Shown piece by piece: positions 4,927 through 21,421 of a DNA stretch of 21,421 bases. The notes beneath the pieces were generated by a model. The model was not told the DNA's origin. It ran no database searches and saw only the letters and a program-made list of their open reading frames with translations. The stretch comes from a virus: the IMG/VR virus record IMGVR_UViG_3300023296_000759, positions 1-21,421 of that record; one strand, written 5' to 3'. Both the position numbers and the translations under genes were made by a program. Numbering within the stretch: position 1 is the first letter of the stretch; each line of letters begins with the position of its first letter.

Positions 4927-5331
4927 ATGGAAAATGAAATAGATATTTTTAAAGGTTTGGGTGTAAGAGTAAAGTTAGAAGATGAAGATGACTTTCTGAT
5001 AGTCAAAGAAACGCTAACTCGCATGGGTGTTTCTTCCAGAAAAGAAAATAAGTTATTCCAGTCTTGCCATATCCTTCATAAGAAGGGTGAGTATGCTATT
5101 GTTCACTTTAAAGAACTTTTTATACTTGACAAACTGGAAAGTAATATATCAGAGTCTGATATAGCAAGAAGAAATTTAATAGCGAAATTACTTGAAGAGT
5201 GGGAATTATGTGATATACTAGATCCTGAGAAAATAAAGGATCCGATTGCTAATATAAAGCAAATAAAGATTATACCACATAAGCAGAAAAGTGAATGGGA
5301 ATTGATACCTAAATATCATCTAGGAAAATAA
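4927..5331 (+). CDS. regA: Translational repressor RegA
   Basis: RegA binds initiation regions of early phage mRNAs and blocks their translation, including replication genes. The 134-aa protein (T4 has 122) keeps the family signatures almost intact: VKETLTRMGVS (residues 26-36), LFQSCHILHKKGEYAIVHFK (43-62, the most conserved part), RRNLIAKLLEEWEL (81-94) and KSEWELIPKYHLG (121-133). The N-terminus has a short acidic extension compared with T4. The gene follows gp62 as in T4, but is preceded by an exact late promoter rather than being directly coupled to gp62, and gene 43 does not follow. Confidence 0.95.
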   Translation: MENEIDIFKGLGVRVKLEDEDDFLIVKETLTRMGVSSRKENKLFQSCHILHKKGEYAIVHFKELFILDKLESNISESDIARRNLIAKLLEEWELCDILDPEKIKDPIANIKQIKIIPHKQKSEWELIPKYHLGK

Positions 5332-5336
5332 ATATA

Positions 5337-5969
5337 ATGAAAGTGATATCTTTTTATACTGAGGGCGATGAGAAAAATTATTATAAACAGTGTGCAGATA
5401 GACTTATACGGGATTGCGACAAATATCAAATTGACTTAGATTTAGTTAAAAAAGAATCTCTGGGATCTTACAGGGAAAATTGTTTATCTAAGCCTAAGTT
5501 TATTCTTGATAAGTTAAATGAGTATAAGACTCCTTTAGTTTGGATTGATGTTGATACTGTTTTTAGAAACAAACCAGATCATTTTTATGCCGAGGCCCTT
5601 ATCAATATTGATTTGGCATTTTCTTCTTCAAATACTAATTTGACAGGGATGAAGGCATCTCCTCTTTACTTCAATTATAATGAGTTATCTAAATTATTTT
5701 TAGAAGACTGGATTCAAGTATGTACTGATGTTTTAGAAAACATGGATATTAACTTTGATCATGAATCTCTTTTTGGTATGGTGTCTAAGCACTCAGGTAC
5801 GATGCAATATGGATGCTTCCCCCCAGAGTATTGTATTTGGCCGGGGCAATCGAATGAAGACACTGTTATCGAAATGGGTCTTTCCGATATTTCGGATAAG
5901 ATTGAAGTTCTAAAGAAAATGGGTATAGACGGTGATCTTTTAGCGATACAAACAATAGGAATATTATGA
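5337..5969 (+). CDS. DxD glycosyltransferase (nucleotide-diphospho-sugar transferase-like)
   Basis: The 210-aa protein looks like a GT-A fold enzyme. It opens with MKVISFYTEGDEKNYY, and PLVWIDVDTVFRNKP (residues 66-80) carries a DVD motif of the type that binds metal and nucleotide sugar. The second half has few recognisable motifs; HESLFGMVSKHS may contribute to the acceptor site. It has no signal peptide or membrane segment and so is probably cytosolic. It starts five bases after regA, with AGGA near 5322, and its TGA overlaps the next ATG, making it the first gene of the glycan module. Donor and acceptor cannot be told from sequence. Confidence 0.8.
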   Translation: MKVISFYTEGDEKNYYKQCADRLIRDCDKYQIDLDLVKKESLGSYRENCLSKPKFILDKLNEYKTPLVWIDVDTVFRNKPDHFYAEALINIDLAFSSSNTNLTGMKASPLYFNYNELSKLFLEDWIQVCTDVLENMDINFDHESLFGMVSKHSGTMQYGCFPPEYCIWPGQSNEDTVIEMGLSDISDKIEVLKKMGIDGDLLAIQTIGIL

Positions 5970-6814
5970 AACAAATACAGTGTGTGGGTGCGGGATTTGA
6001 TCCCTCACAATCTTCATGTTCGAACCTAAAACCCCAATCTTTTTCTTGGACAACAGAACCAGCAGAAAATCAAGTTCTGATTGATAATGCAATTTTGTAT
6101 GCCAACAAAATAGACAGGTTGGATAGTCAAAAATCATATGGTTGGGTTTGCGAGTCTTCGGCTATTGTTCCTCAATTAATAGAAGCATTAAAGGACTTTC
6201 ATGAGGTTATCATAGAAGATGGAGAACTCGAAGCAATATTCACGAATGATAAAAGTCTTCTTGAATTAAATGATAAATTCATTTACTGTTCAAATGGCAG
6301 TAATTATCCGTGGATACCAATAGAGTCGTGGGGTATTGGGGAGAAGAATAAATTATGTTCTATGGTAGCATCACCTAAAGTCATGTGTGATGGACATCAT
6401 TATCGTCAGAAAATTGCATGCAAATTTAAAGACAAAATAGATCTTTTTGGTGGTGCTTGTGGATCTGAGAGAATTGGTATTTCTGCTAATTTGGATCAGG
6501 AATGGAACGACAAAAGGATTGCAGTGTGTCCTTATAAATTTTCTATAGTCATGGAAAATATATCTTCTGACAATTACTTCACAGAAAAACTTACTGATTG
6601 CTTTGCAACCGGAACAGTTCCGATTTACTGGGGAGCAAAAAACATTGGTAATTTCTTTGACTCTAAAGGAATTATCAAATTAGATGATGATTTTAATGTA
6701 GACATTCTTACAGATGATTTGTATAATGAAATGATACCTCACATAGAAGAGAATTATAAAAAAATAAAATCTATGGAAATGGCTGATGATGAACTTGCAA
6801 ACAAAATCTCATAA
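5966..6814 (+). CDS. GT10-like glycosyltransferase (fucosyltransferase family)
   Basis: The C-terminal half carries the alpha-1,3-fucosyltransferase (GT10) signature: YKFSIVMEN (residues 190-198), YFTEKLTDCFATGTVPIYWG (204-223) and NIGNFFD. In GT10 this region binds GDP-fucose or a similar GDP-sugar, with the Glu of the EN pair and the Lys of TEKL as key residues. The N-terminal half (1-150) is less typical and probably holds the acceptor domain. It overlaps the upstream gene by ATGA and the next GT10-like gene by about 29 nt. The neighbour at 6786 keeps the same C-terminal motifs, so the pair are paralogues. The true sugar may not be fucose. Confidence 0.83.
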   Translation: MKQIQCVGAGFDPSQSSCSNLKPQSFSWTTEPAENQVLIDNAILYANKIDRLDSQKSYGWVCESSAIVPQLIEALKDFHEVIIEDGELEAIFTNDKSLLELNDKFIYCSNGSNYPWIPIESWGIGEKNKLCSMVASPKVMCDGHHYRQKIACKFKDKIDLFGGACGSERIGISANLDQEWNDKRIAVCPYKFSIVMENISSDNYFTEKLTDCFATGTVPIYWGAKNIGNFFDSKGIIKLDDDFNVDILTDDLYNEMIPHIEENYKKIKSMEMADDELANKIS

Positions 6815-7652
6815 ACCTACAGTTAAAAACGGGGAATATCTTTTTAGAGATTCTTTTGAGTTTGACTTTCCTGTTGAAATTCATTTTTCTCGTATGGAAG
6901 ACTTTACGAATGCAGATGCGTTTAAGGTTCTCGTTCTGTCCAGCGAGTCAATGATGTCCCCAAATAGATCTACTGTACATGATGTGATGAACAATCACAA
7001 GAGATATGATCTAATTCTTTCAGCAGATGATGAAATTAATGTTTTCTGTAAGAATGCACATTTGTTTCCATATGGAAGCACATGGTTAAATCGAGGTGCT
7101 ATTAATCATCCAGATGGTCTTGGTTTATATAAGCCTTCTCCCATCTTCGAAAGAGAACAAAAAACTTTTGATGTGAGTTTTCTGGCTTCTTGGTATAATA
7201 TTGATCGACCTGGTTACAACTTAAGAAATCAGGTGTGGGTAAGGAAAGATGAAATCGAAATACCAACTAACTTCTACACAAGCACCAAGTGTTTTTCTGA
7301 TTCTCCAAACCCTCTTCCGGGAGGAGAAAAGGAATCTCTTTTCGACTCTCAGTATCATATTTGTATAGAGAATCAATCAGTAGGGCATTACTTTACGGAA
7401 AAACTTATTGATGCTTTCTTAACAGAAACTATTCCTGTTTACTGGGGATGTCCAAACATTGAAGATTATTTTGATGTAGATGGAATGATTTTGTTTCAAA
7501 CATTCGACGAACTTAAAGATAAATTAAATGACTTGACACCATCGTACTACGAAAGTATACTGAACATTGTTCATAAGAATAAGCAAAAGGCAATAGAGTT
7601 TGCAAATTATGATCAGAGAATATTTAATTTTATAAAAAATTCTGAAGTATAA
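6786..7652 (+). CDS. GT10-like glycosyltransferase, second copy
   Basis: This 288-aa paralogue of the preceding gene has YHICIEN (residues 190-196), HYFTEKLIDAFLTETIPVYW (201-220) and NIEDYFD, aligning with the GT10 GDP-sugar-binding region. Outside the C-terminal signature the two proteins differ strongly, so this is an old duplication or two independent acquisitions, probably with different acceptors. KVLVLSSES (47-55) and the DLILSADDE segment (75-83) also fit GT10 N-terminal domains. Starts at ATG 6786 or ATG 6789 are both possible, inside the end of the upstream gene. The stop is followed after two bases by the epimerase start. Confidence 0.83.
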   Translation: MMNLQTKSHKPTVKNGEYLFRDSFEFDFPVEIHFSRMEDFTNADAFKVLVLSSESMMSPNRSTVHDVMNNHKRYDLILSADDEINVFCKNAHLFPYGSTWLNRGAINHPDGLGLYKPSPIFEREQKTFDVSFLASWYNIDRPGYNLRNQVWVRKDEIEIPTNFYTSTKCFSDSPNPLPGGEKESLFDSQYHICIENQSVGHYFTEKLIDAFLTETIPVYWGCPNIEDYFDVDGMILFQTFDELKDKLNDLTPSYYESILNIVHKNKQKAIEFANYDQRIFNFIKNSEV

Positions 7653-7654
7653 TA

Positions 7655-8533
7655 ATGAATGTATTAGTAACAGGTGGTGCAGGTTTCATAGGAAGTAACT
7701 TAGTAGATCGACTGATTGAACAGAATCATGTTGTTACTTGTCTAGACATAAACCCACATGGATATTGGAACGAATCCGCCAAAAACTATACTGGTGACAT
7801 TTGTAACCACATATTAGTCAATGATATAATGAAAGGCATAGACTATGTGTTTCATATGGCTGCTGATGTTAGGATTCAGGATGCCATACTAAATCCTATT
7901 CATTGTTACGAAACGAATGTGATGGGAACTGCTACGCTGTTGGAGGCAGCAAGAAATAACAATGTGAATAACTTTGTGTTTTCATCTACCTCGGCAGTGT
8001 ATGAGTGTGATCACATGGTACAAGGTGAAGATTCTAAACTCTGTCCCACACTAAACCCATACGCATCATCTAAGTACGCTGGTGAAGATCTGTGTAGAAT
8101 GTATTCTAAACTATATGGATTGCACACCACGATTCTGCGTTACTTCAATGTCTATGGAAACCGACAACACACAACAGGACAGTATGCTCCAGTGTTGGGC
8201 GTCTTTATGAAACAGAATGAAGAAGGACTGCCTCTTACGGTGACTGGTGAGGGTAAACAGAGGAGAGACTTCGTTCATGTTTCTGATGTGGTTGATGCAA
8301 ATATACTAGTTGCCGAGAAGAATACCACTCCGTCCAGAGTGTATAATGTTGGATCTGGCGTGAGTTACTCGATCAAAGAGATCGCAAATATGATCTCAGA
8401 AAATATCACCTACATAAATGAGCGAAGTGGAGAAGTGTTTGCCACCCAAGCAATGATTCACCAAATTAGTGAGTTGGGTTGGCAACCACAGATAAATTTA
8501 CATGAATGGTTAAATTATGCCCAAAAAAACTAG
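7655..8533 (+). CDS. NAD-dependent nucleotide-sugar epimerase/dehydratase (extended SDR)
   Basis: This is an extended short-chain dehydrogenase of the UDP-glucose 4-epimerase/dehydratase type that makes or converts an activated sugar. TGGAGFIGSN (residues 6-15) is the NAD-binding glycine motif, SSTSAVY (110-116) supplies the catalytic Ser/Thr, and YASSK (136-140) is the catalytic Tyr-Lys pair. RYFNVYG and GKQRRDFVHVSDV are typical substrate-domain motifs. The 292-aa length is a little under the usual 310-340. Which sugar it acts on cannot be read from the sequence; UDP-glucose/galactose or a UDP-uronic acid are the usual choices. The DNA looks less AT-rich than the gene after it. Confidence 0.9.
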   Translation: MNVLVTGGAGFIGSNLVDRLIEQNHVVTCLDINPHGYWNESAKNYTGDICNHILVNDIMKGIDYVFHMAADVRIQDAILNPIHCYETNVMGTATLLEAARNNNVNNFVFSSTSAVYECDHMVQGEDSKLCPTLNPYASSKYAGEDLCRMYSKLYGLHTTILRYFNVYGNRQHTTGQYAPVLGVFMKQNEEGLPLTVTGEGKQRRDFVHVSDVVDANILVAEKNTTPSRVYNVGSGVSYSIKEIANMISENITYINERSGEVFATQAMIHQISELGWQPQINLHEWLNYAQKN

Positions 8534-9134
8534 TGATATTAAACTTAGTATTTTAATACTTTCTATACCTTCTAGGTTTAGTAAACTTGAAAAATTAATT
8601 TCTAAGTTAGAAAATCAAATAAAAAGTGAAGATGTAGAAATTTTGTGTTTGATGGATAACAAATCATTTCACATATATGAAAAAAGAAATGAACTTCTAG
8701 AAATGGCTAGAGGTAAATATATTTGTTTTCTGGATGATGACGATTCCGTTGGTGAGAATTATATAGAATCAATTTTAGAATCTACGGAAGATGATTTAGA
8801 TCTTATATGCTTCAAGCAACATTGTATTTACAACGGTCATAATTTTGATGTTTACTTTGATATCAATCATACATGGGACCCTATGGATCAATTGGTGTTT
8901 AACGGAAATGGATTTAATGATTTGAAGAGACCTCCATTTCATATGTGTCCATTCAAATCAGAAATAGCAAAGTCTGAAAAGTTTAGAGAAAACTACGATG
9001 CTAATGGTCAATCATGTGAAGATTCTGATTGGCTGCTTAGACTTTATCCGAAGGTGCAGAGTCAAGTTATAATTGATGACGCACTGCATCATTACATTTA
9101 TGACAGCAGAGAAACGGAATCTATTGTAAAATGA
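8517..9134 (+). CDS. GT2-like glycosyltransferase
   Basis: A GT-A family 2 pattern is visible: LSILILSIPSR (residues 10-20) at the start, KRNELLEMARGKYICFLDDD (57-76) leading into the acidic DDDD cluster at 73-76 that binds nucleotide sugar and metal, and CEDSDWLLRLYP further on, which corresponds to the conserved ED of GT2 catalytic sites. The 205-aa length is short but includes these elements. The gene overlaps the epimerase by 17 nt and the next gene by ATGA. Its coding sequence is markedly AT-rich compared with the epimerase before it, suggesting a separate origin. Acceptor and sugar are unknown. Confidence 0.82.
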   Translation: MPKKTSDIKLSILILSIPSRFSKLEKLISKLENQIKSEDVEILCLMDNKSFHIYEKRNELLEMARGKYICFLDDDDSVGENYIESILESTEDDLDLICFKQHCIYNGHNFDVYFDINHTWDPMDQLVFNGNGFNDLKRPPFHMCPFKSEIAKSEKFRENYDANGQSCEDSDWLLRLYPKVQSQVIIDDALHHYIYDSRETESIVK

Positions 9135-9811
9135 AACTAATATGTTTTTCTTTGTGGGGAGATCTACCCATGTATACTGTTGGTGCTGTTAAAAATGTAG
9201 AGATTGCTAATGAACTTTTTCCTGACTGGACTTGTAGGTTCTACATTGCAAATTCTGTTTCTCGTGATATTTACACACAATTGGAGGAACTTGGCGCAGA
9301 ATTGATTGTTCGTGACAACCCCGGAACTACTAATTCTATGTTCTGGAGATTTGAACCTGCGGCAGATGAAACAGTTGATGCAATGATTGTTCGTGATACC
9401 GATTCTCGGTTGGGTATACGAGAAAAACTTGCTGTTGACGAATGGTTAGATTCTAATAAGAAATTGCACATCATGAGAGATCACCCATACCATCAAGCTC
9501 CTATGTTGGGTGGTATGTGGGGGTGTCGGCCAGTTCTTTTACCTAATTTATCTGAGAAAATAGAATATCATATACATCAAAATCCTGACGAAAAGGGTTC
9601 TGATCAACATTTCTTATGGTCGCATGTTTATCCTAAATTTAGAGAAGATTCGTTTGTACATGATCCATTCTTTGATAATAATCCATTCCCAATAGAACGG
9701 AACGAAGATCCATTGGTTAAGTTTATTGGTCAGGTTTTTGATGAGAATGATCGATACGCTGGTGATTGGAAAAATGATTTAGATGTATTGGGTGACTCTT
9801 GTGCTAAATAA
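9131..9811 (+). CDS. Putative DxD glycosyltransferase
   Basis: The 226-aa protein starts MKLICFSLWGDLPMYTVGA and has FWRFEPAADE followed by IVRDTDSRLGIREKLAVDEW (residues about 86-105), a DTD motif in the position of a GT-A DxD. HIMRDHPYH and PMLGGMWGC follow. This layout, 'MFWRF.P......D..I.RDTDSR...RE..AV.EW', is one I associate with uncharacterised sugar-related proteins in phage and bacterial capsule clusters, so transferase activity is likely but less certain than for its neighbours. The gene overlaps the one before by ATGA. Its last 11 or more bases lie within the next gene's start region. Confidence 0.72.
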   Translation: MKLICFSLWGDLPMYTVGAVKNVEIANELFPDWTCRFYIANSVSRDIYTQLEELGAELIVRDNPGTTNSMFWRFEPAADETVDAMIVRDTDSRLGIREKLAVDEWLDSNKKLHIMRDHPYHQAPMLGGMWGCRPVLLPNLSEKIEYHIHQNPDEKGSDQHFLWSHVYPKFREDSFVHDPFFDNNPFPIERNEDPLVKFIGQVFDENDRYAGDWKNDLDVLGDSCAK

Positions 9812-10661
9812 TAGTTTAATATTTTATAATTGGATGCCTTGTGTTGCAGATTTAGTTCTTGATTATCCAGAGAACTATTATCATGCTTTTAATACTATTA
9901 GAGAACATGGTAAAGATAATCTTACTCTTGAAGATATCGAAAACATGAAACCGAATACTAAGATTTTTATCAAGACTGATTTCCTTAAGGACAGAACATT
10001 TCAAACTCAGATTCTCCCTAGAATCAAAACGCCTTTTGTTCTAATAAGCGGCGTTTCTTCGTATCAGGTTGATGACTATCAGTCGATCCTAGACTCAGAA
10101 TACTTGGTAAAATGGTTTTGTACAAATCCACCATGTTACGATAGTAAGGTGGTTGGTTTACCAATCGGCTTTGAGGAAAAGAACAGGGATGGTGGTAACC
10201 AAGAGGTTCTTAAATATTTTTACAACACGAAGCATGAGGATAAATTGAATAGGGTTCTTCTTCCATACCATACAGAAAGCAACAACCCAAAGAGAACGGA
10301 ATATATCAATTATCTTAAGGGACTTTCCTTTGTCGATGTGCAAGAAGAGAAACTTCCTTTTAAAGAATATCTTTCTCTTCTTTCGAGTTATAGATTTTGT
10401 GTGTGTCTTGAAGGTGCAGGTTTTGATACTCATCGAAACTATGAATGCCTTCTTACTGACACTGTACCAATTATGAAAATTAGCACGGTGGATATGATAT
10501 ATCGCCAAGATAATTTACCTTGCATTTCTGTTGCCGACTGGTATACTATAACAGATCAATTTTTCTCTTCTTTCTCCGAAGATAAATATAACTTTAATAA
10601 TGTTCGTGAGTTTATGCTAACAAAAACTCACGCTAAAAGGATAATGAATGAAACTGTTTAA
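9801..10661 (+). CDS. Exostosin-like glycosyltransferase
   Basis: The C-terminal third, SSYRFCVCLEGAGFDTHR then YECLLTDTVPIM (about residues 195-225), matches the exostosin/GT47-type pattern in which 'F.LCPRG.G.D..R..E.L..G.IPV' binds the nucleotide sugar. Upstream are VGLPIGFEEKN and a DVQEEKLPFKEYL segment. The start is uncertain. ATG 9783 would overlap the upstream gene by 29 nt; GTG 9801, five bases after GGTGA, gives a 286-aa protein and is preferred here; ATG 9834 is the shortest option. It overlaps the following gene by 14 nt. The acceptor is unknown. Confidence 0.78.
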   Translation: MLNNSLIFYNWMPCVADLVLDYPENYYHAFNTIREHGKDNLTLEDIENMKPNTKIFIKTDFLKDRTFQTQILPRIKTPFVLISGVSSYQVDDYQSILDSEYLVKWFCTNPPCYDSKVVGLPIGFEEKNRDGGNQEVLKYFYNTKHEDKLNRVLLPYHTESNNPKRTEYINYLKGLSFVDVQEEKLPFKEYLSLLSSYRFCVCLEGAGFDTHRNYECLLTDTVPIMKISTVDMIYRQDNLPCISVADWYTITDQFFSSFSEDKYNFNNVREFMLTKTHAKRIMNETV

Positions 10662-11664
10662 TATTGATATGCATATTTCTATCGTACATGATGTCAAGTC
10701 ATTGTTTCCAGAGATAGGACATAGTATTGACTCTTGTTGTATGTCTGGTCATACTTGGGTAAACAAAGAAAGTCAGGGAACTACGGAAGTCATCAACCCT
10801 CAGAATTGGTTTGGTATCGATCAGGATATGTGTGATCGATTCTATGAGGTCTATAAGGATAAACTGAGTGAGTATGATGGCTTTATTCACTCATACCCTC
10901 CTGCATTTGCCGCCTTGTTCGAGAAGTTCGAAAAGCCAATTTACACCATTGCTTGCACTAGGTATGATTATCCTTGTGGAAGCGGGGAGCATGCAACTCA
11001 GGATAGACTCGCTTGGTTAAACGAGAAACTGATGAAGGGTTACGAGAACGGGCAAGTTAAGTTTATTGCAAACAATCTATACGACAAGAAGTATTGTGAA
11101 GAGTTTTGTGGTGGAGATTGGAAGTTTATCCCTTCCCTCTGTACTTATATTAGTCATCTAAGATGTACTGGTGAAACAAACCAGATTCTCATGTGGGATA
11201 GAAACCGTGATGGCCTGCGTAATGAATTGGTGTACAAGAATGTAGAACCGAGATTTAGTACCTCACAGGTATACGACAGAGAGAAGTTGATCGGTGCGTC
11301 TGGTATTATTCATATCCCATATAACATTAGCGTCATGTCTTCGTTTGAACATTATGCTATGGGGATTCCTATGTTCGTTCCTTCTTATGATCTTTTGATT
11401 GACTGGAAGACCCAAGGTAGAAATGTCCTCAGTGAATTGGAATTCTGTAACAATCTAAATCAACCCGTAAAGGATGAATGGATTAAACTGGCAGACTGGT
11501 ATGATAAAGAGAACATGCCTGGAGTAATGCTGTTTGAAAGTATCGATCACCTACATGAACTGATTGATACTTATGATCGAGAAGCAGTCACGAACGAAAT
11601 GAAAGAATCTTATGGAAAGAAAAAGGAGAGAACAATCGCTCTCTGGGAAGAGGTATTGGTATGA
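10648..11664 (+). CDS. GT-B-like glycosyltransferase-related protein
   Basis: The 338-aa protein has a C-terminal part reminiscent of GT-B enzymes: LIGASGIIHIPYNIS (residues about 214-228) followed by MSSFEHYAMGIPMFVPSYD (230-248). In GT4-like enzymes the corresponding stretch, with a glutamate before the helix and 'A.G.P...', holds the donor nucleotide sugar. The N-terminal half (FIHSYPPAFAALFEKF, PIYTIACTRYDYP) would then be the acceptor-side domain. The similarity is remote and the EX7E motif is not complete, so the function is tentative. AAGG about seven bases upstream supports ATG 10648. Its TGA overlaps the epimerase start. The base composition is less AT-rich than most of the cluster. 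Confidence 0.7.
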   Translation: MKLFNIDMHISIVHDVKSLFPEIGHSIDSCCMSGHTWVNKESQGTTEVINPQNWFGIDQDMCDRFYEVYKDKLSEYDGFIHSYPPAFAALFEKFEKPIYTIACTRYDYPCGSGEHATQDRLAWLNEKLMKGYENGQVKFIANNLYDKKYCEEFCGGDWKFIPSLCTYISHLRCTGETNQILMWDRNRDGLRNELVYKNVEPRFSTSQVYDREKLIGASGIIHIPYNISVMSSFEHYAMGIPMFVPSYDLLIDWKTQGRNVLSELEFCNNLNQPVKDEWIKLADWYDKENMPGVMLFESIDHLHELIDTYDREAVTNEMKESYGKKKERTIALWEEVLV

Positions 11665-12554
11665 ATATTTTAATGACTGGTTGTGCAGGGTTTATCGGTA
11701 ATGTTGCATGGAGAAGGTTAGAAAAGAAATACAAGTTAATCGGTATTGATAACTTGAGTAGGGAAACTGCGGTTGCACCGATTCTTGATTCTATTCAACA
11801 CCATTTGTTTTATGTTGAAGATATCAATAATATTGAGAAAATAAATCTTCCTAAGTTGGATGCTATCATTCACCTAGCCGCTCAAGTAAGTGTTACTCAG
11901 TCTGTCATTGATCCAATTGATGACATCAGGACTAACGCAGAGGGAACTCTGCGAATGTGTATGCTTGCGAAGGAACATGATTGCAAATTGATTTACGCTT
12001 CCACCAATAAAGTCTACGGCGAATTAGAGGGTGTTTCTGAACCTATTAGCGATGATCGTGGTTTCACTCCCGAGACTGCTTACGGTATCAGTAAGTGTGC
12101 TGGCGCACAATATGTTCTTGATATGCTTCCGGACACGGGATATGTTTTCCATCAATCTTGTATCTATGGGGAGACTCAAGTAGGAACAGTTGATCAAGGA
12201 TGGGTTGGTTGGTTGCGTAATAGTATTGATACTAAGCGTCCAGTGACCTGCTTCGGGGATGGTACACAGGTCAGGGATCTTCTTCATGTTGAGGATTTGG
12301 TTGATCTCTATGAGATGGTTCTGGATGGTAAGATTGAGCCAGGATCATATGTAACAGGAGGTGGTGCGGAAAACGCACACTCTTTCTCTGAAGTCATGGA
12401 ACTTCTTGGTGGAGAGATTGACGGATATGATGATTGGCGTCAACATGATCAAAGGTACTTTGTGTCGTCAAATGAGAAACTAAATGCATCTGGATGGAAG
12501 CCAAAGACCTTGTTTAAAAATTGGATAACTAAAATTTATGGAGAAATAATATGA
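11661..12554 (+). CDS. CDP-paratose 2-epimerase-like SDR enzyme
   Basis: The extended SDR motifs are TGCAGFIGN (residues 6-14), ASTNKVYG (113-120), and YGISK (141-145) with the catalytic Tyr-Lys. The set STNKVYG, SCIYG (166-170), then VGTVDQGWVGWL (174-185) and FGDGTQVRDLLHVEDLVD (198-215) is what I associate with CDP-paratose 2-epimerases, which convert CDP-paratose to CDP-tyvelose, a 3,6-dideoxyhexose of some O-antigens. The glycine motif has Cys in place of the usual second Gly. At 297 aa it is shorter than typical (about 340). No other dideoxysugar genes are visible in this window, so the real substrate may differ. Confidence 0.85.
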   Translation: MNILMTGCAGFIGNVAWRRLEKKYKLIGIDNLSRETAVAPILDSIQHHLFYVEDINNIEKINLPKLDAIIHLAAQVSVTQSVIDPIDDIRTNAEGTLRMCMLAKEHDCKLIYASTNKVYGELEGVSEPISDDRGFTPETAYGISKCAGAQYVLDMLPDTGYVFHQSCIYGETQVGTVDQGWVGWLRNSIDTKRPVTCFGDGTQVRDLLHVEDLVDLYEMVLDGKIEPGSYVTGGGAENAHSFSEVMELLGGEIDGYDDWRQHDQRYFVSSNEKLNASGWKPKTLFKNWITKIYGEII

Positions 12555-13462
12555 TAACAATTTCAAAAGAAACTCACCCCGAATTGTATTTCGATTACAC
12601 CAAGGGATTGGATTTGCTTTCTTCGATTAAAGATGAAGATTATGAGTATCCAGAAGAGATTACTAATTTTCACATCTACACTGAAGTTAAAACTGACAAA
12701 GAACTAGAGTGTATTAAATCTTACTTTGCAACTCAAAACTTAGAAAAAACAAAATTGATTGTATGGTCAGATTATGACATTTCTCATAACCCTCTAATAC
12801 AACCATTCAAGGATAAAATGGAACTCAGGGTTTATGATCCAATAAAGGAAGCAAAAGGAACACCATTAGAACATGAGTACGATAAGTTAAAGGCTGCGGA
12901 TTCTAAGCATTATTTGCAGTCAGATTTGCTTCGTCTTTTGGTGCTTTATAAGTATGGTGGTGTTTGGGTAGACATGGATATCGTTTTTCTTCGAGATTTT
13001 AAGCCCATTCTTGATCAAGAATATATGTATCAATGGGGATCGGAAATAAATTATGGAAAACAGGGTGCGTGCGCGACAGTTCTTGCAATGAAAAAGCAAA
13101 GCGAGTTTTCCTGTAAGATGTTGGAAGTTCTGAAAACTATGCCCGTGACTGGCGGAACCGTTTGGGGCAAAGATACTTTTGCTAGGCTATGGCAAGTATA
13201 TCCTAACTTCACTATTTTTCCTTCTACTTTTTTTAATACAGAATGGTTAATAAGTAAAACTGATATTGAGTTTAGAAATTTACTTGGAAGTCCCTTTGGT
13301 TTTTCCAAGATTGAAACGGATAAAGATTTTCTTTTCCTCGATGCTTTTGCTTGGCATTGGCATAACACATCCAGTAAAGATGAACTAATCGAGCCTGGAT
13401 CTAAGTTTGATTTACTCAGAGAAAGAACAAACCTTCTTCTGAAGGATCGCGGACTCGTATAA
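12551..13462 (+). CDS. GT32-like glycosyltransferase (DxD sugar-binding)
   Basis: SKHYLQSDLLRLLVLYKYGG (residues 118-137) followed by VWVDMDIVFLRDF (138-150) is the classical DxD-containing sugar-binding segment of the GT32/capsular-polysaccharide transferase type, with DMD at 141-143. The late AFAWHWHNTSS (about 275) resembles the C-terminal His-rich motif of this group. The length of 303 aa is normal. Its ATG overlaps the upstream stop (ATGA), with GGAG about 10 nt upstream. It is the last gene of the glycan module: the stop TAA at 13460-13462 lies inside the next late-promoter octamer. Confidence 0.87.
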   Translation: MITISKETHPELYFDYTKGLDLLSSIKDEDYEYPEEITNFHIYTEVKTDKELECIKSYFATQNLEKTKLIVWSDYDISHNPLIQPFKDKMELRVYDPIKEAKGTPLEHEYDKLKAADSKHYLQSDLLRLLVLYKYGGVWVDMDIVFLRDFKPILDQEYMYQWGSEINYGKQGACATVLAMKKQSEFSCKMLEVLKTMPVTGGTVWGKDTFARLWQVYPNFTIFPSTFFNTEWLISKTDIEFRNLLGSPFGFSKIETDKDFLFLDAFAWHWHNTSSKDELIEPGSKFDLLRERTNLLLKDRGLV

Positions 13463-13465
13463 ATA
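13458..13465 (+). promoter_or_regulatory. T4-type late promoter (TATAAATA) of the fibre operon
   Basis: An exact late-promoter octamer overlaps the stop of the GT32-like gene and ends 19 nt before the ATG at 13485. AAGGA at 13471-13475 gives a Shine-Dalgarno downstream of the expected start site. It probably drives the GT2-TPR gene and the three fibre genes after it, which follow with no gap larger than eight bases. Confidence 0.78.
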
Positions 13466-13484: not shown

Positions 13485-14795
13485 ATGAAACCAAGTATTA
13501 CCCTGTGCATGATAGTTAAAGATGAAACCCATGTTATTGAACGATGTTTGAGATCTGCTGCGCCATTTATAGATCGCTATGATATAACCGATACTGGATC
13601 TACCGACGGAACCCAAGATCTCATCAAAAAAATAATGGATGAATTAAATGTTCCGGGAACGATTCATCAGTCTGACTGGAAGGGTTTTGGGGATCACGGT
13701 GGCAAGATGGGATCCCGATCAGAATCATTACAGAATGCTGCAAAAAGTGACTGTAATTTTGCATGGATGATTGATGCTGACGACTCTCTGGAAAGTGGAA
13801 AAATGATCATTCCAGACGATCTGACTGTTGATGGTTATTCTGTCAAGATTCAGAGGGGTGACTTTGTTTGGTGGAGAAATCAAATATTCAATCTCAAAAC
13901 TGCTAAATGGAGATATGTTGGTGTTCTTCATGAGTATGCAACTTGCGATAAAGATCAACCTAATTGCAAAAAATTAGAAGGCAATTATTCTCTCACTGCA
14001 AGGACCGAAGGTGCAAGAAATGTTGGTATTACTCCTGTAGAAAAATATACAAGAGATGCAGAGATGTTAGAGAAAGCATTGGAAGAGGAACCAGACAATC
14101 AACGCTATCGGTTCTACCTTGCTCAGAGTTATTTTGATTCCCAGCAATGGGATAAGTCAAGAGAATCATATTTAAAGAGAGCAGAGCATGGAGGTTGGCC
14201 CGAAGAAGTTTTTTATTCTCTGTACAGAGCAGCAATTATTGACGGTATTCAAGAGAAGCCATTAGAGATAATTGCACAATCCTTCTTGAAAGCATATCAA
14301 GCAAAACCTGATAGAGCCGAAGCACTCTTTAATCTGGCAAGAATTTATAGATTGAATGGAATGCCCGCAGTTGGATATATTTATGCGAGAATGGGTTTGG
14401 AGATTTCGTATCCTCATAACGATATTCTCTTTATTCAGGATGAAGTTTATAGGTATGGAATTTTAGATGAGGTTGGAGCATGTGCTTTCTATGCAGGAAA
14501 ACCTCATGTGGGATATGCTGCGTGCAAGAAAATGATAGATGAGAATCTAGTACCTGATGGGGATCGTGATAGAGTTATCGAGAATCTCAGAAGTTATGAA
14601 AAAGTTCTAGGTCAACTACAGCAACAACAGATGAATCAAAATATGAATTCGCAGATGGCAGATTTTGCTAAAAAGCAAAAGGAAAAGGATGATAAAAGAG
14701 TAGAAAAAAAAGAAAAGAAAAATAAAGTTAAAAAATCCACCAAGTCAGCAAGTATACATACTCAATATAAGCCTAGAAAAAAGGTTAAAAAGTAA
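13485..14795 (+). CDS. GT2 glycosyltransferase with TPR repeats
   Basis: The N-terminal domain is a GT2 transferase: [19 protein letters not shown] (residues 4-22), [11 protein letters not shown] (33-43) and [10 protein letters not shown] (92-101) with the DxD-like acidic motif. Residues about 190-360 form TPR-like helical repeats ([18 protein letters not shown], then [14 protein letters not shown]), which usually bind protein or peptide partners. The last 60 residues are Gln/Asn- and then Lys-rich and probably disordered. The GT2-TPR architecture recalls protein glycosyltransferases and is found in T4-like marine phages. The gene leads the late fibre operon rather than the glycan module, so a fibre or other structural protein is a reasonable, untested acceptor. 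Confidence 0.88.
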
Positions 14796-14800
14796 GAAAT

Positions 14801-17524
14801 ATGACTGACAAGATACGAGTCAATAAACTAGAAAAAATGATCCTGAATGAAACTGTTTCTTCCGAGTTGCAGGAGGGGTGTGTTTTTCATGAGGCCGAAG
14901 GAAAACCTGATGAGATTATTAGGTTAGATCCGGGTATTAGTAATATTGATGTTTTATCTTCTGATGGGAAGTTGTTCCGGATACAGGGAAGTAGAAGAAA
15001 ATTAAGTGAACTTTTTACTATAGTAGAAGAAATTGTTCCTGAACCGGAAAAAACTACACCTACGATTATAATTGAACAGGGACAGCCGGGTAATGATGGA
15101 ATTCCTGGCCCTCCAGGTCCTGTCGGGGAAAAAGGTTATCACGGAGAAAAGGGTGATCAAGGAGAACCGGGAAATCCCGGTCCTGCTGGTCCCCCTGGTC
15201 CTGCAAATGGACCTAAAGGTGAGGACGGAGAGGAGGGCCCTCCAGGCCCCCAAGGCCCACGAGGAAATCGTGGCGATCAAGGGGAAAAGGGAGATCTCGG
15301 AGAACGGGGACAGCAAGGTCCAATAGGACTTAAGGGTGATGGAGGAGAGAAGGGTGATAGCATACAGGGAGATCGGGGAGATCCCGGAGAACGCGGAGAG
15401 ATAGGTCCTGCTGGTCCTGAAGGAAAGCAAGGAAAGCAGGGTAATAGTGTACGAGGAGACATGGGAGAGAGAGGATCTAAAGGTGATCGTGGTGATCAAG
15501 GCCTTGCTGGTCCTGTTGGGCCTAGAGGAAAAAATGGAGATCCTGGCGAAAAGGGTGAACCGGGAAGATCGGGTGTGCCAGGAGAGAAGGGTAACCCCGG
15601 AGATTCTAAGATTGAGTCTGTAAAATATCCTTTAGTTTTAGATGTTAAAACCAAAACTCTAAGTTTTAGTACTAAAAAATTAGAAGAACTTCTTTCTAAA
15701 TTTACTTCACTTGCTCAAAAAGATCCAGATTATGCTGGTATAACTGATTGGTTGGCAGCATCAGGTGGTGCTGTTGCTATTAGAGATGGAAATAATGGCG
15801 ATCGAATGATTATAAAATCTCTGAATGATTTAATTATTCAGGGTGAGGGTGTGTCTGTTGTTAAGGATAGAGGATCTAATGTCAGAATGACAATTTCTGG
15901 CGGAGGTGATGTGACTTCTGTCAATGGACAAACTGGTGCTGTTATACTTGCAGGTATTTCTGGAGATTCAGTTTCACGATTCAATGGATTGACTGGTTCA
16001 GTCGGAATCAGTGCTGGTACTGAAATATCAATTACTCAATCTGGTAATACTTTTACCATAGCATCATCGACATCAACTCTCCCATCACAAAGAACATTTT
16101 CCGCATCTGCTCCTTATACTTACACTTCCAGTGCGATAGCAGGTACTGCGACTTCCAACGGAGAAATATTACATAATACAAATAACGACTCAATATCAAT
16201 TTATAAATTTGATAATAATGGTGCAGATTTTAGAGATGTGTTATCGGAAGCATCTGGAATTGGCACTAGCGGTAAAGTTGGTATAGTATTTGGATCTTCT
16301 GAGACAGAACGAGGTTTCTATTATGATTCTGTGACATATAACGGAACTGCGTTTAACTTTACTACCACCGAAATTTTTCCTGACTCAAGTGCCGGGAGTG
16401 GTAAAGCAGTAGAACTAAGGGTTTATCCCGATAACCCAACACAAGGAGCCAGTACTCACTTCCGATTCCCAGATGGAACAAATGCTGTATCGATTGTTAC
16501 TACTTTAAATGGACTGACTGGTGGTGTTACATTAAATGCCGGGAACAATATAACATTAACTACCGGAATAGGTGGGATCACTCTTGCATCTTCTGGGAGC
16601 GGTAGTGGTGTGACTGGTGCTACTGGCGCCACTGGACCTACTGGTGCTGATTCTACGGTTGCCGGCCCTACTGGTGCTACAGGCGCAACTGGCGCAACTG
16701 GCGCTACTGGTAACACCGGAGACGGACTCTTCGACACCACATTCGCAACAGGAACTTCACTTGATCACAGTCTTAATTTTGATAACATTAATACGGTAAG
16801 TGGTGGTGGTAGGAAATTCCCAGTTCTTCTTGAAGGCGGAGAAATTACTTTTGATTACATTCGCGCCCAAGACATCTTCTTGGACTCGGAGTTTGTCTTT
16901 GGTATTAACTCGTTTAGTATATCGGGAGACGCTACCGTTCTGATTGGAAGTGGTAACTACAGTTTGACTGGTAGAAGTTTGTCTGCAACTTATCAAACGC
17001 CTGGAAGCATATCAGTTGCCGCAGCCAATGTGACAACTAACGCATCTTCCGACTCTGGGTTCCCAGTAGACTTGTCTAGTGGTTCTCATACACTGGCAGG
17101 TGCAACTTTGATCGCTTATCCTGGCAGTAAAAACTCTTCGGTGACATTTACTCTCGGCGCAACGGGTAGTGATGCGAGTTTTGTAACCTCGACCGACAGC
17201 ATAACTTTTAGAAACAATAACTATTATGGTGTTTCAAGTAACGCTGGATTGACTGGACCTGATCTATTAACTCTGACTGCATTTTTAGACAGTAATAGAT
17301 CTGCTACTGTAAATGTGAACGCTGGTTCGGGTGAATACATATACTATGCTTACCCTTCCTCTTATGGGGATGCTACTTTCAAGGTAGGTGGATTTGCTGG
17401 TGGTATAAGTAAACTATACGGCGGTGCAACTGCACATACGAATGCTTCGAGTTTCGCTGAAACATACTTTATCTACCGATCGGATAATGCAAGTCTAGGT
17501 TCAACAGAAGTGGTGGTTTCCTAA
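14801..17524 (+). CDS. Collagen-like tail fibre / adhesin protein, 907 aa
   Basis: Residues 1-90 form a non-repetitive head, probably for attachment to the virion. Residues about 94-268 are an almost unbroken collagen-type Gly-X-Y run with triplets such as GPP, GEK, GDQ and GER, broken at GPANGPKG (about 133-140), GDSIQGD and GNSVRGD. Then come NGQTGAV and NGLTG-type adhesin motifs near 373, 395 and 569, and a second GAT-rich stretch (about 604-645) with [17 protein letters not shown] beta-rich C-terminal receptor-binding region follows, with no chaperone or protease domain recognised. It is likely a trimeric fibre with a collagen-like triple-helix shaft. The stop TAA shares a base with the next ATG. 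Confidence 0.88.
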
Positions 17525-19296
17525 TGCCTATTTCACTAATTGACATCATCAAGCAGCAGAACAGAAACGCCACTAGTGGTGACTTCTTTTTCATGCTGGA
17601 CTCTGGTGATATCAACTTCAAGGTTCAGGGGATACAAGTAGATGCATCTTTATCACCTGGCGCTACAACAGATTTTAAGTACATTGTAGAAGATGTATCT
17701 GCTCTCAACGCTGGTTTCGGTACGATCACTGGCGTTGGTGATGATGATATTGTTAGATATAATGGATCTGCCTATGAGATATTCTTAGATGCAAGCAATA
17801 AGCAAGATGGTACGATTGTATTTAACGAGGGTGACTCTAAGTTTTATGGGTTCAATGGAACTGCATGGCAAGAACTAGGATCGGGTGCGGGTGGTGGTGT
17901 TACAGGAGCAACAGGAGCAACAGGTGCGACAGGCGCCACTGGTAACACTGGTGCTGCTTCTACGGTTGCTGGGCCCACAGGCGCAACAGGCGCCACTGGT
18001 AACACTGGTGCTGCTTCTACGGTTGCTGGGCCCACAGGCGCAACAGGAAACACTGGTGCAAGAGGTACTACTGGCTCTGCTGTTGTAGATATTTTCTATC
18101 AGGATTCTGCACCGACAGGGGGAGCCGAAGGTAATATTTGGTTTAATTCAAATAGTGGTTTGTTCTTTATCTATGTTGACGATGGGGATTCAGAACAGTG
18201 GGTTCAGATTGTGGGTAGTAGAGGTCCTACTGGTGCAACTGGTGGTGCTGGATCTGGTGGTGGTGGTGTGTCCGCTGGAGCAGGATTGACGCTAAATGGT
18301 GTTACTCTTGGTATTGATTCTACCGCAACCATTCATGTTGCTGGTGTTTCATCTGATGGTGGTATTACTGCTGGTGGTAATAGTAAATTCGGTCGTGTTG
18401 AAATTAACGACAATCTTATTAAACTAGTAAATGGTAGTGGTATCCATAACGCATCAAATGCCTATGTATATCTCGGTTCATCATATATTGCATTGATGCC
18501 GACCGGGAGTTCACCTTCAGGAATAAATGTCCTCACAACAGAAACGCATGTAAAACAAGTCCTTCATACCTCTGATGGTATCTCAATGGATGCTGCTGGT
18601 ATTACCTTCCCTGATGGAACCTACCAGACAACTGCCGTTAATCCTACTGCAACCATTCATGTTGATGGTATCTCTGCTGATGGTGGTATTACTGCTGGTG
18701 CGGATATTGAAATACCAACTGGCACCAAATATGCTTGGAGTGATGGTGCTTTTATCAACAACAATAGTGGTACTTTGCAGATGTCATCTAGTAGCGGCTA
18801 TTACTCAATGCAACTTGGAGCCAACGGTGTGTCATTCTACCGAGATGTCTTCTGCGAAGATAAACTTCATGTTGCAGGTGCTGCTGGTATTTCTGCTGAC
18901 TATGGAATGGCGATAGGAACTGGTGGTATCACCTTCGCTGATGGAACCCACCAAACAAGTGCCGCATCTGGATCTGGTGGTGGACTCGCAGGAAGTTTAT
19001 CATACAACGGACTTTTAGAATTCCCCACCAACAAGACATATAGATTTGACAGATACACAGTATCAGCAAGAACATTTAACTTCCTGTATGTCGATTGTGC
19101 AACTGGAGGATGTAGTGCTGATTTCTATGCCGCTGGATCTACACTTTCAAATACTCTGAATGTCACACCCAGTGGAGCAAGTGCCAGTTTCTCAACCGCT
19201 GTACCTGCGGGATCTACATTCTCTCTCGTTGTTACTGGAATCACTGGTGGTATTTTGACGCAAGACTTTGGATTTGTTGCGGGATATACACAATGA
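17524..19296 (+). CDS. Tail fibre / adhesin with GAT-rich repeats, 590 aa
   Basis: The N-terminal 125 residues ([20 protein letters not shown], then GTAWQEL) look like a fibre attachment module. Residues about 126-185 are GATGATG-type collagen-like triplets built on a 57-bp tandem repeat. SAPTGGAEGNIWFNSNSG (about 195-212) matches the module in the small protein at 725-1021. Further on, ATIHVAGVSSDGGITAGGN and [13 protein letters not shown] recur, the second again as GITFADGTHQTSA, and the same units appear in the fibre gene at 20087. The end is beta-rich (TFSLVVTGITGG). There is no catalytic domain; this is a structural host-recognition protein. The TGA overlaps the next ATG. Confidence 0.87.
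   Translation: MPISLIDIIKQQNRNATSGDFFFMLDSGDINFKVQGIQVDASLSPGATTDFKYIVEDVSALNAGFGTITGVGDDDIVRYNGSAYEIFLDASNKQDGTIVFNEGDSKFYGFNGTAWQELGSGAGGGVTGATGATGATGATGNTGAASTVAGPTGATGATGNTGAASTVAGPTGATGNTGARGTTGSAVVDIFYQDSAPTGGAEGNIWFNSNSGLFFIYVDDGDSEQWVQIVGSRGPTGATGGAGSGGGGVSAGAGLTLNGVTLGIDSTATIHVAGVSSDGGITAGGNSKFGRVEINDNLIKLVNGSGIHNASNAYVYLGSSYIALMPTGSSPSGINVLTTETHVKQVLHTSDGISMDAAGITFPDGTYQTTAVNPTATIHVDGISADGGITAGADIEIPTGTKYAWSDGAFINNNSGTLQMSSSSGYYSMQLGANGVSFYRDVFCEDKLHVAGAAGISADYGMAIGTGGITFADGTHQTSAASGSGGGLAGSLSYNGLLEFPTNKTYRFDRYTVSARTFNFLYVDCATGGCSADFYAAGSTLSNTLNVTPSGASASFSTAVPAGSTFSLVVTGITGGILTQDFGFVAGYTQ
17941..18054 (+). repeat. 57-bp tandem repeat in fibre gene (two copies)
   Basis: A 57-bp unit starts at 17941 and again at 17998, starting GGTAACACTGGTGCTGCTTC. 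The copies match until the last few bases, where GGCGCCACT in copy one is GGAAACACT in copy two. Each unit encodes 19 residues ([19 protein letters not shown]). Exact copies suggest recent duplication by slippage or recombination. Confidence 0.85.
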
Positions 19297-20078
19297 TTTT
19301 TGGTGGAACACCCGAGACTGCAATACTCAATGATCCAGATCTTACATTTCTTTTGAATGCGGGAAATGCTTCAAGTGGAGGTGATGGAATAACAGGTGGA
19401 AGTGGAACTTGGTATGACATGTCTGGCAACGGGAAAGATTTTGCTGTTGGGTATGGTACTCCTACTTGGAGAGATGATTACGGCGGGGTTATTGGATTTA
19501 CTGCTGCTGACGAACTCGACTCTGATCATTTTATTTTAGATGTGAATGTTGCTGCTGCGAAGATGACAAATACTACTATGTTTGTTGTTGTTAAGAATAC
19601 TAGAAGTGCTGGAGTTAAAGATTTTTCTGGTATTCTTCATGCTAGAGGTGGTGGTGGGATGTCCACTGGAATACAAGGAACCAGTAGTTTATATGGTGCG
19701 GCTGGACCATCAGGAAATTTAGGATACAATTATGGAAGTTCTTATGCAACTTGGCGATATAATTCTGGACTTACTTTTCCGCTAAATAAATGGTGTTTGG
19801 CTGTTGTTGCAGTTGACACTAGTGTAGGTGCAACATTTTATATGTGTGATGCAGACAACGGAATACAAACTAATGTACATAGTTATAGTTCATATGGTAC
19901 AATTAGTGATTTTAGAACAACTCGTATTGGAAGAGAGACTGGTGGACAGGCGTCCGGGGCCGACAGTAACCGAGGTTGGCAGGGTGATTATGCTATGGCG
20001 GGAATGTACACAAGAACTCTAAATTATGGTGAAGTTGAAAAAATATACAATTCATTAAAGAGTAAATATGGGATATAA
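19293..20078 (+). CDS. LamG/concanavalin A-like lectin domain protein
   Basis: The 261-aa protein resembles concanavalin A-like (LamG-type) lectin domains seen in phage structural proteins. [13 protein letters not shown] (residues about 41-53) is the typical 'W.D.SGNG..' start. The middle holds TMFVVVKNT, the segment [18 protein letters not shown] lies near 168-185, and the C-terminus [20 protein letters not shown] (about 233-252) is the usual end of this domain, followed by NSLKSKYGI. It probably binds a surface glycan or forms the tip or side of the fibre apparatus. It starts in an ATGA overlap with the preceding fibre and ends eight bases before the next fibre gene. No catalytic residues are recognised. 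Confidence 0.85.
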
Positions 20079-20081
20079 ATA
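20074..20081 (+). promoter_or_regulatory. Late-promoter octamer (TATAAATA) before the last fibre gene
   Basis: An exact TATAAATA overlaps the TAA stop of the lectin-like gene. It ends only five bases before the ATG at 20087, so a transcript begun here would have almost no leader. It could be a real late promoter for a leaderless message or an AT-rich coincidence; confidence is lower than for the other two. Confidence 0.5.
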
Positions 20082-20086: not shown

Positions 20087-21421
20087 ATGACCAATTTTCC
20101 AAATAGTCCAACCAACGGTCAAACAGTAACATTCGGTACTATAGTGTACCAATGGAATGGTGCTGAATGGATATCTCTTGGATCGATCGGTGCTGCAATA
20201 GGTCCGACTGGAAACACTGGTCCGATAGGCGCAACTGGCGCCACTGGTGCTACAGGAAATACTGGTGCTGCTGGACCCACAGGTGCAACAGGCGCAACAG
20301 GAAACACTGGTGCTGACTCTACAGTCGCTGGACCCATTGGTGCCACTGGTGCTACTGGTGCAACAGGCGCCACTGGTGCTGACTCTACAGTCGCTGGACC
20401 CATTGGTGCCACTGGTGCTACTGGTGCAACAGGCGCCACTGGTGCTGATTCTACGGTTGCTGGACCAACTGGGGCCACAGGCGCCACTGGTGCTGACGGT
20501 GCTGGTGGTGGAGGCGCCACTCTACATTCGGGTGTTGGACTTACATTATCAGCACTTGTGTCTGGTAAAGGTTACACAATGTCTGTTGATCCAACCGCAG
20601 TAGTTCATGTCGCTGGTATTTCTGCTGATGGTGGTGCTACCTTTGATGGTATTGTGTATGCTAACCGATTTATGGGTTACGGCAATTCTGCTACTGGTGT
20701 ATTAGTGGGTGGTGTTGGACTCAATAACTTTTATATAAACACTAGCGGCGCGTCCAGACTGAGAATTTGGTCTGGTGCTATTATTGCTTATGTAAAACTT
20801 CAGGCAGACGCACTTATTCATGCCAAAGCAGGTATCTCAATGGATGCCGCTGGCATCACCTTCCCTGATGGAACCCACCAGACAACTGCCGCATCTGGGT
20901 CTACCATAACTGCTGGTGCAGGTATGACACTCGCTGGATCTACTCTAGGTATCGATCCAACCGCCGTGATCCATGTCGCTGGTATCTCTAGTGATGGTGG
21001 TGCTACCTTTGGTGCAGGTATCTTTGTTACTGGTGGTAACATCGTTGGTCCGAATAGAGCCACGGGAAGAGTTATTACTGATGTCGTTCAGAGTCCAGAT
21101 AATGCAAACTCTTTGTATGGTTATAAAAACAACAGCAGTGCATGGGTGGTTCAGACTGGTAATAGCGTTGCTCAAATTACCGTTAGTTCTGGTGGTATTC
21201 AATCGGCCGCGAAATTAGACGCAACCACATTCGTCAAAGCAGGAACATATGTTCATGCTGGAACTGGTGTGTCTCTTGACGCAGGTGGCATCACCTTCCC
21301 TGATGGAACCTTCCAATCAACTGCCTCTGCCTCTGCTGGCGGAACTGGTTACATTGCCGGTGCTGGACTCACACTAGATGCTGCTGGTGGAACCTTTAGT
21401 ATTGATCAAACAGCCACAATT
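20087..21421 (+). CDS. Tail fibre / adhesin with GAT-rich repeats (partial, 3' end missing)
   Basis: An open frame runs from ATG 20087 through all 445 codons to the window edge without a stop. It starts [20 protein letters not shown] then [12 protein letters not shown], a common phage fibre N-terminal module. Residues about 42-142 are GATGATG-type triplets with the [16 protein letters not shown] unit repeated. Beyond these are [48 protein letters not shown] and [14 protein letters not shown], the same adhesin units as in the 17524 gene, in places nearly identical at DNA level. It is probably a paralogous fibre. A weak GGGA lies 13 nt before the ATG; no stronger Shine-Dalgarno is seen. Confidence 0.85.
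20331..20462 (+). repeat. 66-bp tandem repeat in fibre gene (two copies)
   Basis: A 66-bp unit beginning GACCCATTGGTGCCACTGGT starts at 20331 and again at 20397. The copies are identical except for a few synonymous changes near the end (GACTCTACAGTCGC against GATTCTACGGTTGC). Each encodes 22 residues, including GADSTVAG and several GAT triplets. A partial related copy precedes it. It is part of a triple-helix-like shaft that can change length. Confidence 0.85.

What the first reader, a model, noticed from the sequence alone, without database searches (positions are those of the whole stretch)
13485..17524. GT2-TPR glycosyltransferase leads the collagen-like fibre operon: candidate fibre glycosylation system
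A GT2 enzyme with TPR repeats (a partner-binding fold) is the first gene after a late promoter and lies six bases before a 907-aa fibre with a real collagen-like Gly-X-Y shaft. Collagen-like shafts are known glycosylation targets in other systems, and the upstream module could supply the sugar nucleotides. Together these may form an undescribed virion-fibre glycosylation system.
Basis: inference. Interest (0 to 1): 0.65.

Follow-up and report, generated by a model that had tools for sequence, protein, structure and literature searches.

The report
Phage enzyme likely sugar-coating collagen-like fibres
A marine T4-like phage carries, directly before its collagen-like tail-fibre genes, an enzyme related to the one that puts sugars on the collagen-like hairs of Clostridioides difficile spores, so the phage probably glycosylates its own fibres; this has not been tested and would be a new use of a known kind of enzyme.

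Summary
A 436-aa GT2-TPR protein (13485-14795) ends 5 nt before a 907-aa fibre with a 59-triplet collagen shaft, and TATAAATA lies 19 nt before the GT start. Fibre glycosylation is now better supported than from adjacency alone. (1) The protein is homologous to C. difficile SgtA, an O-GlcNAc transferase of collagen-repeat Thr in BclA3, encoded immediately upstream of bclA3. Nearest solved folds are SunS/ThuS; GmaR is the best sequence match. All act on proteins or peptides. (2) Of 116 virus loci, at least 70 have a collagen-like fibre before dUTPase. Every fibre-first hit with upstream sequence has GT2-TPR there. GT and fibre distances track each other (r=0.86) better than GT and dUTPase (0.50). 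(3) Homologues in many bacterial phyla also sit by collagen-like genes: 36 of 80 loci within 4 kb, none at 4-8 kb. Corrections: the main shaft has no Thr in position Y, so likelier targets are Thr-rich G-X-T runs in three of the four module genes; the sugar-gene block is optional; the idea has a characterised bacterial precedent. Glycosylation itself, the sugar and the acceptor residue remain untested.

The parts
13458..13465 (+). TATAAATA, T4-type late promoter-like site before the GT2-TPR gene
   Evidence: enriched before this gene across loci, 22/116 vs 34/802 block ORFs; not significant from this window alone
13485..14795 (+). GT2-TPR glycosyltransferase, 436 aa: GT-A domain about residues 1-180, TPR/helical repeats about 184-353, long helix and Lys-rich tail 358-436
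   Evidence: PDB profile hits GmaR 5e-13, SunS/ThuS about 1e-7; Foldseek SunS/ThuS E 1e-13; SgtA E 4e-13
13773..13784 (+). DADD (residues 97-100), DxD-type motif, invariant in 81 relatives
   Evidence: aligns to IDAD of SunS and GmaR and LDADD of SgtA
13929..13934 (+). His149-Glu150 of the invariant G-x-L-H-E motif
   Evidence: aligned HE in SunS and SgtA
14801..17524 (+). First collagen-like fibre, 907 aa
15080..15607 (+). Main collagen shaft, residues 94-269, 58.7 triplets rich in E/K/D/P/Q/R, no Thr in Y; relatives mostly 52-60 triplets in total
15608..15907 (+). Conserved post-shaft domain (PL-x-x-D ... GGA-V-x-I ... IKS-L-ND-L), probable trimerisation or registration domain (role inferred)
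   Evidence: orthologues in related loci by profile search
16607..16717 (+). Thr-rich G-X-T runs in the first fibre, candidate O-glycosylation sites
   Evidence: 10 of 11 triplets have Thr in Y
17524..19296 (+). Second fibre gene, 590 aa, with Thr-rich G-X-T runs at 17896-18081
19293..20078 (+). Probable virion structural protein, 261 aa, weak similarity to PHROG 8510
20074..20081 (+). TATAAATA before the next fibre gene
20087..21421 (+). Fourth gene of the module, collagen-like fibre (runs off the window) with Thr-rich G-X-T runs at 20201-20497
5337..13462 (+). Sugar-gene block: GT10-like (5966, 6786), epimerase/dehydratases (7655, 11661), GT2-like (8517), Gly_transf_sug (12551), others unassigned; optional in relatives
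2048..5331 (+). T4-like replication cluster: gp45, gp44, FkbM-like methyltransferase, Cpn10-like, gp62, regA

Best explanation
The GT2-TPR gene encodes a soluble cytoplasmic protein O-glycosyltransferase of the SgtA/GmaR/SunS type that modifies the phage's own collagen-like fibre proteins during virion production. The TPR domain is proposed to hold the fibre chain while the GT-A domain transfers a sugar, most likely from a UDP-sugar, to Ser/Thr. The likeliest sites in this phage are Thr residues in Y positions of the short G-A-T/G-P-T/G-N-T runs in the first, second and fourth genes of the module. The glycan may then be extended by enzymes of the upstream block where that block exists. Shown here: the genes, the homology, the conserved pairing, the parallel divergence and the bacterial parallel. 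Inferred: catalysis, donor, acceptor residues and benefit to the virion.
For: Homology to SgtA: E 4e-13 over residues 4-241, profile 9e-23; same gene order there, with a 685-aa collagen-like protein (117 of 154 triplets G-X-T) starting 78 nt after it (locus L243 found by exact match to the published sgtA primer). PMC7157674: recombinant SgtA adds beta-O-GlcNAc to Thr of BclA3 collagen-repeat peptides. Best PDB relatives by sequence are GmaR and SunS/ThuS, by fold SunS/ThuS. Motifs invariant in 81 relatives. 116 non-redundant loci: at least 70 with collagen before dUTPase. Reciprocal search: 22 fibre loci, GT2-TPR directly upstream or one gene away in all that hold upstream sequence, fragments at contig ends included. 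Distance correlations GT-fibre 0.86 vs GT-dUTPase 0.50, bootstrap difference 0.10-0.60. Bacteria: 36 of 80 loci with at least 10 strict G-X-Y triplets within 4 kb, 0 at 4-8 kb, 31 of 36 Thr-rich in Y. In one 6.1-Mb mycobacterial genome the only Pfam collagen gene lies about 1.8 kb from its only GT2-TPR match. No multi-span membrane protein by a simple hydropathy test among 875 block ORFs. Late-promoter motif enriched.
Against: No direct evidence of glycosylation. The main shaft carries no Thr in Y, and Thr-rich runs are seen downstream in only 45 of 116 loci (fragments limit this), so the acceptor cannot be one uniform motif in view. 14 of 116 loci have no fibre next to the GT. Identity to SgtA is only 24%. 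SunS transfers to Cys, so the linkage is not fixed by fold. Virus loci are related and not independent. The late-promoter motif is present in only 22 of 116 loci.
Confidence: 0.7

Rival explanations
1. The GT2-TPR enzyme, like the rest of the sugar block, remodels the host's surface polysaccharide (LPS/O-antigen) to block superinfection; it lies next to fibres only because both occupy the variable host-recognition island.
For: This is the published reading for glycosyltransferases in pelagimyophage islands (PMC7029224). A sugar block lies next to the gene in most loci.
Against: Closest characterised relatives act on proteins or peptides. GT2-TPR and fibre stay together without any sugar block in L102, L103, L122. 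Bacterial homologues sit beside collagen-like genes in 36 of 80 loci. Hydropathy found no multi-span protein in the block. It does not predict the closer GT-fibre distance correlation.
Confidence: 0.14
2. The enzyme glycosylates another virion or host protein (for example the BppU-like protein that often lies between it and the fibre), and the collagen fibre is a bystander.
For: The BppU-like ORF follows GT2-TPR directly in many loci and tracks it well (r 0.82). 18 loci have it with no collagen seen before dUTPase or the contig end.
Against: Many loci have the fibre directly after the GT with no BppU-like ORF. In bacterial loci the recurring partner is the collagen-like gene.
Confidence: 0.11
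3. The enzyme glycosylates phage DNA bases against restriction, like T4 alpha/beta-GT; the position between regA and dUTPase in some loci would fit.
For: In 14 loci the gene lies directly before dUTPase with no fibre in between.
Against: No thymidylate-synthase-family gene (the family of the hydroxymethylases that make the acceptor base) in eight contigs of 80-157 kb, while the search worked in control genomes (contigs may be incomplete). Homology and TPR architecture point to proteins. It does not explain linkage to collagen-like genes in bacteria.
Confidence: 0.05

Closest known systems
SgtA-BclA3 of Clostridioides difficile spores (PMC7157674)
   Same: GT-A domain plus C-terminal TPR; gene immediately upstream of a collagen-like gene; homologous sequence (E 4e-13); enzyme modifies Thr in collagen repeats
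   Different: Here encoded by a T4-like phage before virion fibre genes; 24% identity; main shaft lacks Thr in Y and only short G-X-T runs are present; activity and donor unknown
GmaR, flagellin O-GlcNAc transferase of Listeria (PMC9638930)
   Same: N-terminal GT domain (best PDB sequence hit) followed by TPR; modifies a filament protein
   Different: GmaR has an antirepressor domain and a flagellin acceptor; neither is present here
SunS/ThuS peptide S-glycosyltransferases (SunS from SPbeta prophage)
   Same: Nearest full-length fold (Foldseek 1e-13); GT2 plus helical repeats
   Different: SunS modifies Cys of a bacteriocin (established knowledge); NCBIfam SunS score 26.9 against a cutoff of 350
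Mycobacteriophage virion glycosylation (Freeman et al. 2023, as cited in PMC12619734)
   Same: Phage-encoded modification of virion proteins
   Different: Targets there are capsid and tail-tube C-termini, not collagen-like fibres; enzymes not compared here
Mimivirus collagen hydroxylase/glucosyltransferase (as cited in PMC8968730)
   Same: Virus-encoded modification of viral collagen
   Different: Acts on hydroxylysine; no lysyl hydroxylase was seen among the window proteins scanned

Membership tests
SgtA-type GT2-TPR glycosyltransferases of collagen-like proteins | GT-A (GT2) domain followed by TPR repeats, sequence homology to SgtA | tested here: met
   (24% identity over residues 4-241, E 4e-13; profile 9e-23)
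SgtA-type GT2-TPR glycosyltransferases of collagen-like proteins | Gene next to a collagen-like gene | tested here: met
   window; at least 70/116 virus loci; SgtA locus L243
SgtA-type GT2-TPR glycosyltransferases of collagen-like proteins | Thr-rich G-X-T collagen repeats as acceptor | tested here: inconclusive
   Main shaft has none; short G-X-T runs in three of the four module genes; only 45/116 loci show such runs downstream
SgtA-type GT2-TPR glycosyltransferases of collagen-like proteins | Transfers beta-O-GlcNAc to Thr/Ser | not testable with these tools
   needs an enzyme assay; shown for SgtA in PMC7157674
SunS peptide S-glycosyltransferase (TIGR04195) | score above the curated cutoff 350 | tested here: not met
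   26.9 bits
GmaR | C-terminal antirepressor domain after TPR (637 aa in all) | tested here: not met
   protein is 436 aa, ends in a helix and Lys-rich tail
T4-type DNA glucosyltransferase system | hydroxymethylase of the thymidylate synthase family to make the acceptor base | tested here: not met
   PF00303 absent from eight large related contigs; incomplete contigs limit this
O-antigen/LPS modification cluster | multi-span flippase, polymerase or lipid-linked transferase | tested here: not met
   865 of 875 block ORFs with no hydrophobic segment, 10 with one (simple hydropathy test)
Mimivirus-type collagen modification | lysyl hydroxylase | tested here: not met
   none among the window proteins scanned with Pfam; rest of the genome not seen

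The most novel reading that the evidence does not exclude
A widespread family of GT2-TPR enzymes, shared by bacteria of many phyla and by aquatic T4-like phages, is dedicated to glycosylating collagen-like fibres. In the phages it sugar-coats tail fibres of near-constant shaft length (mostly 52-60 triplets), a virion fibre glycosylation not described in the literature found here.
Probability: 0.6. Interest if true: 0.75.

Novelty: new variant of a known kind. Interest (0 to 1): 0.62.

Why it matters
Phage glycosyltransferases are usually put down to DNA protection or to changing the host's surface. If this one modifies fibres, host-contact structures of abundant aquatic phages are glycoproteins, which would affect host recognition, stability and any host range inferred from sequence alone. 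It also links a large family of unassigned bacterial enzymes to a predicted substrate, collagen-like surface proteins, which can be tested one pair at a time.

Tried and rejected
Searches of 50,697 cultured phage records found no close GT2-TPR relative (8 weak records) and no post-shaft domain, so no cultured phage with proteomics is at hand. The 26-sequence post-shaft alignment was too variable for a pattern scan and was replaced by an 11-sequence one. The window's own post-shaft domain found only the contig of its closest relative. A Pfam call failed on wrong coordinates and was repeated without that protein. Gly-rich proteins and GC-rich antisense frames inflated the first bacterial collagen count; a stricter test (at least 10 triplets, at most 20% Gly in X/Y) was used. 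The late promoter in the window alone is not significant. Considered and set aside: DNA glucosylation, LPS remodelling as sole role, mimivirus-type hydroxylysine chemistry (see rivals and membership). Freeman et al. 2023 is not held, so it is cited only through PMC12619734.

Full report
What is there. The window is a 21.4-kb virus record from a T4-like phage. It has RNase H, sliding clamp gp45, clamp loader gp44, an FkbM-like methyltransferase, a Cpn10-like protein, gp62 and regA. A block of sugar genes follows (5337-13462), then the GT2-TPR gene (13485-14795), then four fibre or virion genes (14801 to the window end). The GT2-TPR gene ends 5 nt before the first fibre. TATAAATA at 13458-13465 lies in the right place for a T4-type late promoter, but three exact sites in the window are not more than chance (1.67 expected).

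The enzyme. Pfam finds the TPR repeats and finds GT2 in a relative. PHROG 13126 covers the protein. The AlphaFold2 model from 40 relatives has mean pLDDT 92. Its nearest solved folds are SunS and ThuS, peptide S-glycosyltransferases (E 1e-13; the next hits are TPR proteins at 2e-6). A sequence profile finds GmaR, the flagellin O-GlcNAc transferase (5e-13), then SunS/ThuS (about 1e-7). D36, the DADD motif (97-100) and H149-E150 are invariant or nearly so in 81 relatives, so the enzyme is probably active.

The characterised relative. PMC7157674 reports that C. difficile SgtA (GT domain plus four TPRs) adds beta-O-GlcNAc to Thr of BclA3 collagen-repeat peptides and that sgtA lies immediately upstream of bclA3. 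The encoded protein aligns with the window protein over residues 4-241 (24% identity, E 4e-13; profile 9e-23), and a 685-aa collagen-like protein with 117 of 154 triplets G-X-T starts 78 nt after it. The window therefore has the same gene order with a homologous enzyme.

The pair in viruses. A scan of IMG/VR gave 80 loci and a second scan 47 new ones. After removing duplicates and fragments, 116 loci carry GT2-TPR. At least 70 have a collagen-like ORF before dUTPase, 18 are classed as having a BppU-like ORF without collagen in view, 14 have dUTPase directly, and the rest are cut short or have other large ORFs. 'BppU-like' is my reading of the sequence; Pfam gives no match. The fibre in question is one family: a variable N-terminal part, a shaft of mostly 52-60 triplets in total (the longest unbroken run is about 40 in some), and a conserved post-shaft domain. 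Starting from the fibre instead, 22 loci were found, 17 of them on contigs already seen. All with upstream sequence have GT2-TPR directly upstream or one BppU-like gene away, including three where only its end is on the contig. Protein distances of GT and post-shaft domain correlate at 0.86, GT and dUTPase at 0.50 (19 loci; bootstrap interval of the difference 0.10-0.60). Physical closeness may contribute to this. Where GT2-TPR lies apart from fibres (L062), the same contig has the same fibre about 21 kb downstream, and two other large contigs (L100, L128) carry it beyond the fetched flank.

The sugar block is optional. Where regA is in view, L102, L103 and L122 read regA-GT2TPR-BppU-fibre with no sugar gene, and nine loci read regA-GT2TPR-dUTPase. 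Of 875 block ORFs none has two or more hydrophobic segments by a simple hydropathy test, so no flippase or polymerase is evident.

Timing. TATAAATA lies within 110 nt upstream of GT2-TPR in 22 of 116 loci, against 34 of 802 block ORFs (Fisher 1.5e-7) and none of 238 replication, nucleotide and chaperone genes tested. It is found in 0 of 14 loci where dUTPase follows directly. Relatedness makes these p-values too small. The pattern suits late expression with the fibres, in a minority of loci.

The independent test. Because related viruses share gene order, I looked at bacteria. The 80 best bacterial relatives (23-39% identity) include many phyla. With a strict test (at least 10 consecutive G-X-Y, few Gly in X/Y), 36 loci have a collagen-like stretch within 4 kb of the GT and none has one between 4 and 8 kb, over 583 and 507 kb of flank; in 31 of the 36, Thr makes up at least 30% of Y. 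In one mycobacterial genome of 6.1 Mb the only Pfam collagen gene lies about 1.8 kb from the only GT2-TPR match. Collagen genes are otherwise thinly spread in that class: 0 to a few places in most of 40 genomes. The loci include Actinomycetes, Bacillota, Pseudomonadota, Bacteroidota and candidate phyla, read from record titles. This linkage was not used to choose the loci.

Where the sugar would go. The main shaft of the window's first fibre has no Thr in Y in 54 uninterrupted triplets and one Ser in X. Thr-rich runs (GAT/GPT/GNT) are in the first fibre at residues 603-639, the second at 125-186 and the fourth gene at 39-137. By the SgtA precedent those are the likelier acceptors. But Thr-rich runs are seen downstream in only 45 of 116 loci, so in other viruses the site must be elsewhere or out of view.

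Against DNA or LPS as target. PF00303, the family of the hydroxymethylases that make the base for T4-type glucosylation (established knowledge), is absent from eight contigs of 80-157 kb, and the same search works in controls. The published reading of glycosyltransferases in pelagimyophage islands is host O-chain change (PMC7029224). That may be right for the block, but does not explain the bacterial linkage.

Verdict. The target (G-X-T runs rather than the main shaft), the dependence on the sugar block, and the word 'undescribed' need correction. No step of the chemistry is shown.

Noticed in passing
window 3687-4519: An FkbM-like methyltransferase and a Cpn10-like protein lie between gp44 and gp62, which are neighbours in T4 (the latter from general knowledge).
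   Followed up: no
L002-L059, fibre ORFs: Shaft length of the GT2-TPR-linked fibre is nearly constant (mostly 52-60 triplets in total) although the shaft sequence varies, as if length is under selection.
   Followed up: partly
L244 (minimal-arrangement virus, contig 156.6 kb): The fibre lies about 21 kb from GT2-TPR, followed further on by a 1,066-aa ORF with 37 G-X-Y triplets of which 30 have Thr in Y.
   Followed up: partly
L189, L191, L193, L200, L209: In Streptomyces the GT2-TPR gene and a Thr-rich collagen-like stretch on the opposite strand lie about 0.6-0.75 kb apart, head to head.
   Followed up: no
L082 (Tunturiibacter phage Tunturi_5), 14998-25069: A jumbo soil phage has a 34%-identical GT2-TPR protein ending against an oppositely oriented tail-fibre cluster.
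   Followed up: no
window 17896-20497: The G-A-T/G-P-T runs are separated by near-identical spacers ([16 protein letters not shown]) in different fibre genes, suggesting exchange between them.
   Followed up: no
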